NCBI GenBank assembly: GCA_011109175.1
Contig: RDEW01000020.1
Span: 619,273 to 683,272, forward strand
DNA: 64,000 nucleotides
Origin: Dicyema japonicum
Lineage: Eukaryota; Dicyemida; Rhombozoa; Dicyemidae
Direction of reading: 5' to 3'
Below are positions 4,603-57,465 of the stretch, in pieces. Position 1 is the stretch's first letter, and every line of letters starts with the position of its first letter. The notes under the pieces were generated by a model. That model was not told the DNA's origin, made no database searches, and saw only the letters and a program-made list of their open reading frames with translations. The translations under genes were made by a program, and so were the position numbers.

Positions 4603-5081
4603 ATGGGTGTTGTTTGTGGTTATAAATAGGGAAACCAAGAGGAATATTGACTGGAAGGAAATTAAAGTCAATAAGAAGAACACAAAAATGGAATGATCTG
4701 TCATATAGAAGATCTCACTTGGGGACTCGTTGGAAGTGTAACCCATTTGAAGGATCATCTCAGGCTAATGGAATTGTATTGAAGAAGATGTATTGATGTA
4801 TTAACTATTGTAGAGGAGTGGAAGCTAAACAACCAAACTCAGCCCTTCGTAAATGTGTGAGAGTACAACTAATAAAGAATGGCAAACAAGTGATTGCCTT
4901 TGTTCCGGGGGATGGGTGTTTGAACTACATTGAGGAGAATGATCAGGTCACATTGTCAGGATTTGGAAGAAAGGGACATGCTGTGGGGGATATTCCTGGA
5001 GTTAGATTCAAGGTTGTCAAGGTTAAGGATATATCTCTTCATGCTCTCTATTCTGGTAAAAAGGAGAGGGCAGCTAATTAA
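4603..5081 (+). CDS. RPS23: 40S ribosomal protein S23 (uS12), three exons
   Basis: Universal uS12 protein of the small-subunit decoding centre. Exon 1 is just ATG plus one base (4603-4606). A 23-nt GT-AG intron (4607-4629) restores MGKPRG, and a 24-nt intron (4790-4813) restores KKIGVEAKQPNSA. Without removing them the frame is broken at both points, so the introns are well supported. The third exon carries the conserved KQPNSALRKCVRVQLIKNGK, the FVPGDGCLNYIEEND loop and GHAVGDIPGVRFKVVKV. The spliced protein is about 143 residues, the family's normal length, ending in KKERAAN and TAA. No frameshift is needed. A one-residue-plus-one-base first exon is common for ribosomal protein genes. Confidence 0.97.
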
Positions 5082-6250
5082 CTTTGTTGTTTGAATTTTC
5101 ATTTCTATTATTTGTCTCCTCTAATAGGTTATACCACTATGGTTGTGTGTTTTTTATATTATTGAGGGTATCCTCTAAATAATTATTACCCACATTTAAA
5201 TGGACATATTATCCTTGATTACCTTTTTATTCTCTCGATCTAATTACTAATTATAGCTGTAACAGACTTACCGGGAGGGGTCTCATCCCCAAACTTATTT
5301 TGTTCAAGTTAATTGCCGACTTGCTAATAAATGAATTTTGTTAGCTCCATCTTAACTAGTTCATGACTGGTTATATCACAATTTGTCATCAGTGTCTATG
5401 TACAATACCCTTCAAATTATTTATTCATAATAGAAGGTTCAGAGGAGAACTCAAGATACTCCATGGCGGTATCCCCACTACAAGATATCTGTAGATCCTC
5501 GGCTTTATTCGCACTTTAGTCAAATGTGAAAAAGGAGACCTCTCCATCTGACCACCGTATTATCCTTACTCGTGTTCCCCCTAGAGGTTTGTCCTTTCCT
5601 TTTCGAAGATCTAAAAAATTAACTCAGAAGAGAAAACTTTGTACTTTAGGGATTGTGGAATACTGAAAAGTACGATTTCAGACCATGTGGTCTCTTACAA
5701 CGGAGGCCTTTTGAGATAGAAGACTGATATTTGCATAGTGATGCACAATTTAACTTGGTCTCGGATGGATATCAAAGATTAGTTATTAGAGAGATATAGT
5801 ATGTGAAACTGGTGGAAGTATCTAAAATGAATCTTCATGAGAGTTTCAGAAACAGTAATACCAGAATACAGATTAAGTGAAGTCAATCTATTCATTATTG
5901 TGTTTTTGAATGATATTGTCAATTTCATTAATTTCAGATATTTAATTCTTTGTTTACCAGAATGAAACGCAGTTGGAAGAGATAACAAATTAACTTTGTA
6001 ATTGTGGAGTCTTGGAATTTTGTGTAAGCTTTGACTTTTTGATTACAGCAGTGTCACTATTATTGAACAGGAAGGTGCGCATATCAATGCATTTTTGAGA
6101 AGTCTGTTGAGTACTAAGTTTAATGTCAACACACATGATTCAAGTAATTTGGGAACAGTTGTCTGGTATGGAGAGAGGTGGGTCTGTTGGCTACAAATGT
6201 AGACAGCATGTGTCATCGTCGAATTAAAGTATAGTTCTCACGGTCACAGT
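5082..6250. other. No gene recognised
   Basis: About 1.2 kb downstream of RPS23 with no protein similarity I can name. A 69-residue minus-strand open frame (5779-5988) looks like chance in AT-rich DNA. The stretch 6000-6250 is less AT-rich but not clearly coding. Confidence 0.4.
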
Positions 6251-6271
6251 GGACGCACCCTTTCTAAGTAG

Positions 6272-53800: not shown

Positions 53801-56800
53801 TTTGAGGAAACAACAGTTAACTGTTCAGTCTTAGAAGACAAATTTTGGGTTAATCGTTGAATATCTGTATTTTTCTTTTCAATATTTTCTTGAAGTTCAG
53901 CGTGGTCATCCTCTAATTTTCTATAAAGTTTTTGTATATTTGATTTGTCCTAAAATATGAATTTGTAATAAACAGTGGTTTCCTTTTGTAGTTGATTATG
54001 TAATTCTTCAATGTGTGTTTCCAACTTTTTAATGGTCTTTTGCATATTCTTACTTTGGTCTTGCTCAGCATGGAACAATTCCTCAGTTTTTGCATATTAG
54101 ACTCCACAATCTTCTTTTCCTTAGCAACCTATAATAAGTATTAAATGACATTATCCAGTAAATGCATTTTATTTGAAAGATCGTCTGTCTGTTCCTGCAA
54201 TCGTTGTTCTATAGTGCTTTTGTCCTGCTTTAGTTTGGCATGCTTTTCCTCCTGTTCTTTCAATCTACTCATTTTAATAAATATTACATTCTCTCGGATT
54301 CTGATAATAATTCTCTCAGTTGGTTTATTTCCCCTTGATTCTTTTTGTATGCTGTTTCCATTTCCTGCATATCCTCGTTCATAACATCAATAAGAGTCTC
54401 CAATTCTGTAATCTTCTTGAGGAGTTGGCTTATTTCCTTGAATAAAGGGAAATAGACTTGTTGATTGTCGTCATTTCGTTCAGACTCATCTGCTAGTTTT
54501 TGTGACTTGTCTGATATCTCATGTTCGAGTTTGTCTATTTGTCGTTGTCTTTGTTCGTCAAGAGCCGTCAATTTTTCATATTTATCTCTGAGAGAGTGAA
54601 GCTCATTTTCTCTGTCTTTTTTCTCATCATCTTGTTTCTTAAAGTCAACAAGTGGTAATAACTAATGAATAAGGAATAAGACAACTTTACTGTACAATTT
54701 AAACCACGACCACTCCCTAAGGTTTATATAATTTTTGCAGTTCTGTTGAATAACATGTATACTAGACAATAAACTCTCCCTTTTTATATGATGTCTTACT
54801 ATAAGTAATCATATACTTTATGGACAGAAACATTCTGCACTGTGTGGTTAATTCAGTCACTATTAGGTTAAGTTTATTGTCCCTCTCTTCTTCCAGATTA
54901 GACAACACTCCTGCACGAAAGAATATCTTTGAGGTTCCCAATCTATACAGGGATGAGTCCAATTCCAGTTCATTAATCTATTTATTTAATAGAATAACCA
55001 TATTCTCTGTTGCTTTACGACTATCCATAAAGCTATCACGACTATTCATATCAACACTCGACACAAGCAGAACATATCTTTGAACGAAATTTTGGTAAAA
55101 GACTCTGTTTGGGAATCCTTGACGACATATTCTTATCCCCTCGAGGACTCCATTACATCGAAGTTGATCCAAAACAAGATGAGGATCAATAATTCCTGGC
55201 TATTCATATATAATAAAAATACCTTTTTTAATAGATTAGGAATTATACAACGAACAAAATGAACATTAGTCGTATACAGTGTATCAATTAATTTAGTCAA
55301 CTGTCCTTTATAGAGTTGAGACACTGTCCTCAACATTCCTCGTTTCTTTTTAGTATCATCCATGTGACCTACAATAAACTAAATTAATTACCTTCTTTCC
55401 ATATTTCAGCAATCAGAGAGTTTGATGAACTTGATAATACGGACGCAACATTGTCATTCAAAGGGTCAGCATTCTTGGTAATCCAGTCGACACAATAATA
55501 GTATACCTATATTCTATACATACACCTACCTTCCCAGCATAATGATAAATTCCAAAATCACTAAAAGTGGACAGTTTTTCTGAATTTATAAATTTATTCT
55601 TATTTTTATTTTGGGAGATGAGTTTATCAACTAATGATTGGTAAGTGGATTTGGGGAATAGGCATTCTTCATCGAGAATAGAGAGTATTCCCAGAGGCTG
55701 AGTAATTTATAAATAAACTTTTTCAATAAGGTCTATGGTTGGCTGTAAATCCAAACCAAAGTCAATAAAGTCCCAAGGAATATTTTCCTTTTTGTATTCC
55801 TCCTGTTCTAATATGAACATTGTGTGATTGAATAGCTGCTGTAGTTTCTCATTTGTAAAGTTTATGCAGAGTTGTTCGAATCCATTAATCTGTATAATAT
55901 TACAACAAACCTTAAATATTTCAAATCCGGCAATATCCAAAATTCCTATGAAATTTTCATGTGACAATTTATTTTTGTTTAATTGTTTGTTAATGAATGC
56001 AACAATGTAACCAAACAGTTTCTCATATGTAGCCTTTGCAATTGATTCCACTGAAAATATAGCCTTTATAAGTAATATGGACAACCTGGTCTTTGGTTTG
56101 TACCTTCTTTACAGTTTCTGACCCAACTTTAAATTTAGGATTTAGTATTGCCTGTGTGAATCCAACAATTTGAATTCCTAAAAGATGACACATTTTCTGA
56201 ACATCTAAAATAAATATAAAATTACATGAATTATCAGGAAGTGTTGCTTGGTCATTATTCCTCTCCCTTCCGAATATTATTTTCCCCAGAGTGAGTATGC
56301 CACACAATATTTGAAATATATTTTTGATGACTTCATCAGAAAAGCCAACATTTTGTAATGCTTTGAATGTCAGAGTGGGAGTATCATCTACGCCAATAAC
56401 GTGCATTTCTCCATTAGTGAAATATGGGTACTCCTTTATGTCCTCAAGCAAAAACTCGCCTATTATGTAAACAAGTCATAACCTGCAAATGGAAAGTCTT
56501 TAGAAAAAAGTTGATGAAAAATATGAAAATTCCGTTCATTGTCAGTTTGTCTTATGACTCTGCTCTTTTCAAGTAAATCTAAAAAATAAGTATGAGCCAA
56601 CATGTGTCAATATTGACAGAGGAAATGGATCCTGATGGATCGAAATAAATTTTAATGAATTTTCCCTGTAATGATTAGAAAGATAAACAAATCTAGAAGA
56701 ATTATCATTTTTAATAGTTTTAGCATTTCCGAATGATTCCAAAATGGGGTTAATTAATAGTAATCTTTGGTTAATATCCTCCTATTAATAAACAATAGTG

Positions 56801-57465
56801 ACAACCCCACATGATTTATCTGTCCTGGCAATATGAGCCAAATACTGAATTATCTTTTTAGTGTTTTCAGTTTTACCAGCCCCAGACTCACCCCTATATT
56901 TATTATAACAGATTACGTGCAGAGGATTGACTGGTTGTCACGACCTAATATATTTACTCAATCATACATTCTATCAAATTCTTATACGCAACTGACGAAA
57001 TGGCAAACACATGAGGAGGTACTTCTGTCTTTCTTTTCATGTTGTAAATATTTGCAATATCATTACTGTATATAGGAATACTTCTATATGGATTGATTAC
57101 CACACAAAATAGTCCTGAATATGTCTTTGTCTTAGTATTATATTTACATATATCAGTCCACTATTATAACGACTTGATATGTTGTGCAGCACTGATGCTT
57201 CATTCAAACATGTCAATTCACACATGTCCTCCACTTTATCAAACTTTGGGGGGTTCATTTTGTGCAAATCCATTTTTGATACTTTCTTACTTTCACCACT
57301 CTTCAATTTTACTGACACTTCTTCTCCATCTATATTTACTATGCTTGCTTCGACAAATCCTTTATCAACATCAGGAATCCATATCATCTTCTTACTAGCC
57401 CAGTCTTTGTCATCCTCAGTTATATTTCTTTCCAAGTATTTCAATCCTTCTGACTCGATACTCAT
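50899..57465 (-). CDS. Non-muscle-type myosin II heavy chain, complete, many exons
   Basis: Two-headed actin motor heavy chain. Starts MSIESEGLKYLERNITEDDK at 57465. Landmarks in order: WASKKMIWIPD; MNPPKFDKVEDMCELTCLNE; YTYSGLFCVVINPYRSIP after a 23-nt intron (57125-57147); P-loop GESGAGKTEN at 56869-56892 after a 23-nt intron (56894-56916); switch I NDNSSRF near 56710; switch II DIAGFEIF near 55930; EKLQQLFNHTMFILEQEEYK; KKRGMLRTVSQLYKGQLTKL, closer to non-muscle than muscle myosin; FVRCIIPN; LDQLRCNGVLEGIRICRQGF; then one diverged IQ region and a coiled-coil rod of about 1,100 residues ending SRLKK. A final 23-nt intron (50912-50934) gives the end SKR-stop at 50899; reading through it would stop at 50919. 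Every other exon joint I checked needs an intron of 21-24 nt and no frameshift. No nonhelical tailpiece. Confidence 0.93.

What the first reader, a model, noticed from the sequence alone, without database searches (positions are those of the whole stretch)
4603..57465. Uniform 20-25 nt introns in every intron-containing gene
Thirty-eight introns placed in RPS23, the sterol oxygenase, SNX5/6, TMED, PKG, DNAAF5 and G3BP fall between 20 and 25 nt, all GT-AG, plus about ten more checked in myosin of the same size. Removing each restores a conserved protein reading, so the calls are not arbitrary. This is close to the shortest length a spliceosome is known to handle and is reported for dicyemids. 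No ordinary-size intron was needed anywhere.
Basis: partly seen in the sequence, partly recalled or inferred. Interest (0 to 1): 0.75.

Follow-up and report, generated by a model that had tools for sequence, protein, structure and literature searches.

The report
Uniform 23-nucleotide introns in a dicyemid
The genes here are cut by dozens of tiny introns, nearly all 20 to 25 letters long, a known feature of dicyemid parasites that this genome shows in an especially short and tight form, with one 52-letter exception.

Summary
The observation largely holds. A spliced aligner with no length preference placed 81 GT-AG introns in 8 conserved genes, 55 of them in the window. Eighty are 20-27 nt (mean 23.0, SD 1.2; 33 are exactly 23). 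GT-AG was the best of 256 boundary pairs in each of four genes tested.

"No ordinary-size intron anywhere" fails: the myosin tail has a 52-nt intron at 53229-53178. TMED and G3BP were not verified.

The genome is a dicyemid: its aldolase is 269 of 361 identical to Dicyema acuticephalum; the next full-length hit listed is 62%.

Ultra-short dicyemid introns have been in print since 2007. This set is shorter and tighter than the published D. acuticephalum sets (24.9 +/- 2.5; 26.2 +/- 1.9).

Likely mechanism: U2-type splicing by intron definition. U1, U2, U6, Prp8 and SF1 genes and a U2AF2-like gene are present; donors are weak (no GTRAGT in 81), and AT-richness separates introns from exonic decoys best. 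U12 and U6atac RNA genes persist, but no U12-type intron was found. No RNA was available; splicing is inferred.

The parts
4603..5081 (+). RPS23 (uS12), 143 aa; introns 4607-4629 (23 nt, after ATGG) and 4790-4813 (24 nt)
   Evidence: Spliced protein aligns without gaps over 141 residues to PDB uS12, E 3e-69; intron 2 placed by 120 of 120 homologs; intron 1 by hand
6608..7428 (-). MSMO1 (methylsterol monooxygenase), most of the protein; introns 7338-7359 (22), 7237-7259 (23), 6895-6917 (23)
   Evidence: Placed by 110, 113 and 119 of 120 homologs with no length preference; margins 49, 36, 52 against P0126
10472..11300 (-). SNX5/6-like PX-domain gene; putative introns 10857-10878 (22), 10714-10734 (21), 10559-10577 (19); the model also has an unverified 275-nt first intron (10946-11220)
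   Evidence: Ab initio only; PX domain E 5e-9 on the spliced protein; not homology-placed
18707..20498 (+). PKG (cGMP-dependent kinase); introns 18864-18887 (24), 19005-19028 (24), 19135-19156 (22), 19221-19242 (22), 19321-19343 (23), 19433-19457 (25), 19524-19544 (21), 19714-19738 (25), 19870-19891 (22), 19982-20003 (22), 20146-20166 (21), 20331-20350 (20)
   Evidence: Free-length alignment to human PKG1 (PDB 7lv3), 12 introns, margins 4-42
42722..45239 (-). DNAAF5; putative introns 44317-44338 (22), 43364-43386 (23), 42847-42869 (23); one region of 71 nt unresolved (43513-43583)
   Evidence: Ab initio introns; first 532 aa of the model match Pfam TPR_DNAAF5 2e-60 and HEAT_DAAF5 1e-38
55065..57465 (-). 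Myosin II heavy chain A, head; 14 introns: 57125-57147 (23), 56945-56967 (23), 56894-56916 (23), 56782-56805 (24; 27 scores one unit more), 56666-56688 (23), 56579-56601 (23), 56460-56482 (23), 56205-56225 (21), 56064-56085 (22), 55890-55910 (21), 55698-55718 (21), 55507-55529 (23), 55369-55391 (23), 55200-55222 (23)
   Evidence: Free-length alignment to human non-muscle myosin IIB (PDB 4pd3); margins 1-96
50937..53898 (-). Myosin II heavy chain A, tail; introns 53608-53629 (22), 53372-53394 (23), 53178-53229 (52), 53088-53112 (25), 52806-52829 (24), 52615-52637 (23), 52480-52501 (22), 52275-52298 (24), 52166-52188 (23), 52039-52062 (24), 51855-51876 (22), 51615-51636 (22), 51468-51490 (23), 51231-51252 (22), 51099-51121 (23); one more at 53775-53821 or 53775-53800 ambiguous
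   Evidence: Free-length alignment to the myosin B protein of the same window, margins 4-45 for the fifteen listed
53178..53229 (-). The 52-nt intron, the only exception in the set; contains one GT and one AG, so it cannot be split; self-matches at a lag of 29 nt, 18 of 23 positions (23 + 29 = 52)
   Evidence: Margin 45; sequence read directly; one GT and one AG; self-match
61089..63965 (-). Myosin B tail gene; introns 63848-63870 (23), 63466-63489 (24), 63235-63258 (24), 62673-62695 (23), 62470-62491 (22), 62071-62094 (24), 61831-61852 (22), 61469-61491 (23), 61335-61359 (25)
   Evidence: Free-length alignment to the myosin A tail protein, margins 10-28

Best explanation
These are genuine U2-type spliceosomal introns of a dicyemid, shrunk to a narrow length class centred on 23 nt. 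Shown: GT-AG ends, length class, AT-richness, weak donors, and genes for U1, U2, U6, Prp8 and SF1 and a U2AF2-like protein. Inferred: they are removed from RNA by intron definition. U1 (5' end ACUUACCUG) tolerates poor donors of the form AG|GTWWTT, and U2 pairs with a degenerate TACTAAC-like site whose A tends to lie 7-12 nt from the intron end. There is little room for a polypyrimidine tract, so AT-richness against more GC-rich exons, short flanking signals and the fixed 22-24 nt spacing together mark the intron.
For: Aligner without length preference: 80 of 81 introns 20-27 nt. GT-AG ranks 1 of 256 boundary pairs in 4 of 4 genes; total score 5110 against 4619 for the next pair. Aldolase a: five introns, each placed identically by 115 of 115 relatives tried (P0246-P0360 of the 120 listed), and the spliced protein aligns end to end (361 aa) with D. 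acuticephalum aldolase. Spliced Prp8 aligns without gaps to human PRPF8 over 681 residues that span 12 of its 17 introns. U2 GTGTAGTA in 6 of 6 loci read, U6 ACAGAGA in 4 of 4, U1 ACTTACCTG in 3 of 4. Prp8, U2AF2-like gene, SF1. AT content separates introns from 206 exonic GT..AG decoys of 20-27 nt with AUC 0.93; intronic donor 0.83, intronic acceptor 0.82, exonic -3 to -1 0.79, length 0.71, exonic +1 and +2 0.57, all together 0.96. TACTAAC scores highest of 90 permutations, z 5.0 against dinucleotide shuffles.
Against: No RNA evidence. Other permutations of the branch motif also reach z above 4 (best rival 4.7), so the branch signal is weak; PMC2483917 reports no branch point signature for dicyemids. 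One 52-nt intron shows that the machinery is not limited to 20-27 nt. 28 of 81 introns would leave no in-frame stop within the segment if retained, and 5 of the 21 whose length is a multiple of three could be read through, so retention cannot be excluded for those by sequence. The 11 U1 hits all lie below the Rfam cut-off.
Confidence: 0.93

Rival explanations
1. The segments are removed from DNA, not RNA: short AT-rich sequences eliminated from the somatic genome, like Paramecium internal eliminated sequences (comparison recalled). Dicyemids are reported to undergo chromatin diminution and to form extrachromosomal circles.
For: Chromatin diminution in dicyemids is stated in PMC6543705 (abstract passage). 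The segments are short and AT-rich (mean AT 0.78). TA..TA boundaries rank third of 256 in total over the four genes.
Against: GT-AG ranks first in each gene and beats TA..TA by 497 score units in total. Core spliceosome genes are present. For D. acuticephalum both cDNA and genomic DNA were cloned to find exon-intron boundaries (PMC2222250, passages).
Confidence: 0.03
2. Intron length is uniform in conserved genes only; the genome as a whole has a second, ordinary class of introns that a homology-based sample misses.
For: One 52-nt intron in 81. Published D. japonicum gene models average 38.2 bp (PMC6736024), and about a third of predicted introns of Dicyema sp. are 30 bp or longer (PMC6543705). 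The flat-prior finder also calls many long introns, none of them verified apart from the 52-nt one.
Against: 80 of 81 homology-placed introns on four contigs, including a part of Prp8 (17 of 17) and two aldolases (9 of 9), are 20-27 nt; a gene in an arbitrarily chosen block has one 23-nt intron in its conserved domain. Published means rest on automatic predictions.
Confidence: 0.3
3. The length itself is the main signal: the spliceosome measures about 23 nt between the ends and donor pairing with U1 is nearly dispensable.
For: No GTRAGT in 81 introns, G at +5 in 10 of 81, SD 1.2 nt without the 52-nt intron; canonical U1 5' end in 3 of 4 loci read.
Against: Within 20-27 nt, length discriminates less well (AUC 0.71) than AT content (0.93) or donor (0.83); the 52-nt intron exists.
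Confidence: 0.12

Closest known systems
Short introns of Dicyema acuticephalum (Aruga 2007, PMC2222250; Table 2 of PMC2483917) and Dicyema sp. (PMC6543705)
   Same: Phylum, AT-rich, narrow length class, weak 5' splice sites (as reported in PMC2483917)
   Different: Here 23.04 +/- 1.18 (n 80, the 52-nt left out) against 24.93 +/- 2.51 (n 41; Welch p 3e-5) and 26.2 +/- 1.9 (n 16; p 6e-6), and against a median of 27 in Dicyema sp.. Methods and gene sets differ, and leaving out my outlier favours the tightness.
Dicyema japonicum genome (Lu 2019, PMC6736024)
   Different: Published mean intron 38.2 bp from gene models; homology-placed introns here average 23
Stentor coeruleus 15-16 nt introns (PMC9505925, passages)
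   Same: Tiny GT-AG introns; U2 branch-pairing and U6 ACAGAGA regions conserved
   Different: Stentor is 7-8 nt shorter and its branch A sits at position 10 in 90.9% of introns; no such fixed place here
Paramecium tetraurelia introns (mean 25.14, SD 3.06; PMC2483917 Table 2)
   Same: Length class, AT-richness, weak signals
   Different: Unrelated lineage; multiples of three are not significantly rare here (21 of 80, p 0.11)
Bigelowiella natans nucleomorph introns (mean 19.1, SD 0.57; PMC2483917)
   Same: Uniform tiny introns
   Different: Shorter and tighter still; endosymbiont nucleus

Membership tests
Dicyemid ultra-short spliceosomal introns | Genome belongs to a dicyemid | tested here: met
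   Best of the 120 aldolase hits listed (7999 scored) is D. acuticephalum, 269 of 361 identical; the next full-length single-copy hit has 62%; lineage Dicyemida. One gene only; no tree was built
Dicyemid ultra-short spliceosomal introns | Introns of roughly 20-30 nt in a narrow class | tested here: met
   80 of 81 are 20-27 nt; one is 52 nt
Dicyemid ultra-short spliceosomal introns | GT-AG boundaries | tested here: met
   Rank 1 of 256 boundary pairs in 4 of 4 genes
Dicyemid ultra-short spliceosomal introns | Very weak 5' splice site | tested here: met
   0 of 81 GTRAGT; G at +5 in 10 of 81
Dicyemid ultra-short spliceosomal introns | Removal at the RNA level | not testable with these tools
   No reads or transcripts of this species were at hand
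Stentor-type tiny introns | Length 15-16 nt and branch A at a fixed position | tested here: not met
   Shortest is 20 nt; the best branch-like A, where the match is good (40 of 80), is spread over -4 to -13
U12-type introns | RTATCCTT donor with TTCCTTRAY branch site | tested here: inconclusive
   3 genome matches against 2 for the control; two of the three places read, one in sequence that by eye resembles the reverse transcriptase frames of the window, one without evident coding sequence. No match to a relaxed pattern in the 364 kb held; the genome-wide relaxed search did not complete
Paramecium-like internal eliminated sequences | TA-bounded segments removed from DNA | tested here: not met
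   GT-AG ranks first of 256 pairs, so above TA..TA, in each of four genes

The most novel reading that the evidence does not exclude
This dicyemid carries the shortest and most uniform introns of any animal, recognised mainly by AT-richness and fixed spacing with U1 pairing nearly dispensable, and its surviving minor spliceosome (U12 and U6atac) works on introns of the same tiny size that no longer carry the classical U12 motifs.
Probability: 0.12. Interest if true: 0.7.

Novelty: already known. Interest (0 to 1): 0.32.

Why it matters
[quoted passage not shown] The tight, homology-placed set here gives a clean length class for gene annotation in dicyemids, where read mappers and gene finders set for larger introns may misplace them (my inference). 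The coexistence of U12 and U6atac genes with tiny introns makes a testable question of what the minor spliceosome still splices there.

Tried and rejected
Ab initio gene finders with a flat length prior: the first degenerated; the later ones show a peak at 20-25 nt but skip exons with long introns that are unverified; they are used only as a hint. SNX against PDB gave only weak hits (best E 0.12). A U12-type intron search gave no clear excess over its control (3 against 2). A depletion of lengths divisible by three was tested and is not significant (21 of 80, p 0.11). The branch point test is suggestive only. Calling the genome D. japonicum was considered; size, GC and gap rate fit, but it was not tested against named sequences. 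The U2AF2 model also rang in 2 of 14 control genomes, as general RNA-binding domains do; the assignment rests on collinear matches on contig C114.

Dropped or changed rows: the ambiguous 47/26-nt intron was left out; the 56805 intron was set to 24 instead of 27; the 52-nt intron was left out of means and of the decoy test where stated; the ISG20L2-like 23-nt intron is outside the 81; aldolase hits P0242-P0245 (long or partial matches) were not used as alignment queries.
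Full report
What was tested. I re-placed introns without any length preference. A spliced aligner (BLOSUM62, flat intron penalty, GT..AG ends, minimum 10 nt, no maximum) was run with relatives of each protein. PKG against human PKG1 gave 12 introns of 20-25 nt. The myosin head against human myosin IIB gave 14 introns, 13 of 21-23 nt and one where 27 nt beats 24 nt by a single score unit; I took 24. MSMO1 gave 22, 23 and 23 nt, placed by 110, 113 and 119 of 120 homologs. RPS23 gave its second intron, 24 nt, with 120 of 120 homologs; the first, 23 nt after ATGG, was read by hand, and the spliced protein aligns without gaps to PDB uS12. 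The two neighbouring myosin genes were aligned to each other: the tail of gene A gave 16 introns (one ambiguous, 47 or 26 nt; one of 52 nt; fourteen of 22-25 nt) and gene B nine of 22-25 nt. This last comparison is less independent, because the protein of gene B came from the flat-prior finder.

Outside the window, two aldolase genes gave 5 and 4 introns (23-27 nt), each placed by 115 of 115 relatives tried, and a 3.8-kb part of the Prp8 gene gave 17 introns of 22-26 nt with margins of 17-87. Part of the human PRPF8 query was from memory; the spliced dicyemid protein aligns without gaps to the printed human chain over 681 residues that cover 12 of the 17 introns. In all there are 81 introns; 80 are 20-27 nt, mean 23.04, SD 1.18, 33 of them exactly 23; 57 of 81 have a margin of 15 or more, and of these 56 are 20-27 nt and one is 52. 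One more gene, ISG20L2-like, from an arbitrarily chosen block has one intron of 23 nt in its conserved domain, margin 10.

Is it more than chance? The same aligner was run on PKG, myosin head, MSMO1 and aldolase a with each of the 256 possible boundary pairs. GT-AG was first in each of the four genes, and in total scored 5110 against 4619 for the next pair; in MSMO1 alone the lead was small (815 against 805). Its 34 introns were 20-27 nt; with the next three pairs lengths ranged from 10 to 70 nt. So the length class is not produced by the method.

The exception. The myosin A tail intron at 53229-53178 is 52 nt. It holds one GT and one AG, so it cannot be two smaller ones, and the protein on both sides aligns to the paralog (margin 45). 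It matches itself at a lag of 29 nt in 18 of 23 positions, which would fit a 23-nt intron plus a 29-nt internal duplication; in AT-rich sequence, and as the best of 18 lags tried, this is only suggestive. The stretch between myosin A head and tail, TMED and G3BP were not homology-tested, and the SNX and DNAAF5 models contain one long unverified call each (275 and 71 nt).

Whose genome. G000 has 64.67 Mb in 191 contigs. Its aldolase a has D. acuticephalum aldolase as best hit, 74% identical, against 62% for the next full-length single-copy hit listed (269 of 361). Size, GC and gap rate resemble the D. japonicum assembly of PMC6736024, but I did not test that identity.

How it likely works. U2, U6 and U1 genes are present. 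The U1 hits, 11 in number, all lie below the Rfam cut-off (best 69.0 against 69.5), but 3 of 4 read carry ACTTACCTG at the 5' end; U2 carries GTGTAGTA in 6 of 6 and U6 ACAGAGA in 4 of 4. Prp8 and SF1 are found. A U2AF2-like gene is found on C114: exon-wise matches cover positions 168-510 of 510, each below the whole-protein cut-off. The introns themselves are weakly marked: no GTRAGT in 81, G at +5 in 10, mean AT 0.78. Against 206 GT..AG decoys of 20-27 nt in 9,309 exonic bases of six genes, AT content alone gives AUC 0.93, intronic donor bases 0.83, intronic acceptor 0.82, exonic -3 to -1 0.79, length 0.71, exonic +1 and +2 0.57, all together 0.96 (80 introns, the 52-nt left out). A TACTAAC-like site scores above dinucleotide shuffles (z 5.0) and best of 90 permutations, though the runner-up reaches 4.7; where the match is good (40 of 80) the A lies 4-13 nt from the end, most often 7, 8 or 12. 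If retained, 53 of 81 introns would bring an in-frame stop within the segment; 5 of the 21 with a length divisible by three would not. I read this as ordinary intron definition by a spliceosome with its core parts, in which AT-richness, short signals and fixed spacing add up. That step is inference.

What is known. Aruga 2007 reported 26.2 +/- 1.9 nt for 16 dicyemid introns (PMC2222250, abstract and passages). Table 2 of PMC2483917 gives 24.93 +/- 2.51 for 41 introns, and that paper notes the weakest known 5' boundary and no branch point signature (passages). PMC6543705 gives a median of 27 bp (passages). PMC6736024 gives a mean of 38.2 bp for D. japonicum (passages). Ogino 2010, on 40 genes of D. 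japonicum, is cited in PMC6543705; I did not see it. The class is therefore known. New here, as far as these passages go, are its tightness in this genome, the single exception, and the presence of U12 and U6atac genes. Two searches of the held library for dicyemids together with the minor spliceosome or U12 gave one paper, PMC2483917, whose U12 passages do not treat dicyemid U12 introns.

Noticed in passing
L050 (C68:163471-163599) and L051 (C34:237761-237858): One gene each found for U12 (85 bits) and U6atac (37 bits) snRNA: minor spliceosome RNAs persist although no U12-type intron was found.
   Followed up: partly
L044 about 2015-2043 (aldolase b): Where aldolase a has a 27-nt intron, the paralog has a GT..AG segment of about 26 nt and reads on in frame only if it is retained; either an intron turned into coding sequence or a local assembly error.
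   Followed up: partly
18431-18696 and 23365-23619: The N-terminal coiled-coil part of PKG has a second, very similar copy about 5 kb downstream (open frames).
   Followed up: no
61089-63965 and 50919-57465: Two myosin II genes lie in the same direction next to each other; the second is seen only as a tail and runs to the window edge.
   Followed up: partly
11466-12389, 24-26 kb, 34-35 kb, 59-60 kb: Open frames that by eye look like reverse transcriptases or other parts of retrotransposons.
   Followed up: no
21977-22058 and 46644-46715: tRNA-Leu (aag) and tRNA-Thr (agt).
   Followed up: no
window:4603-4606: The first coding exon of RPS23 is only four bases long (ATGG).
   Followed up: no
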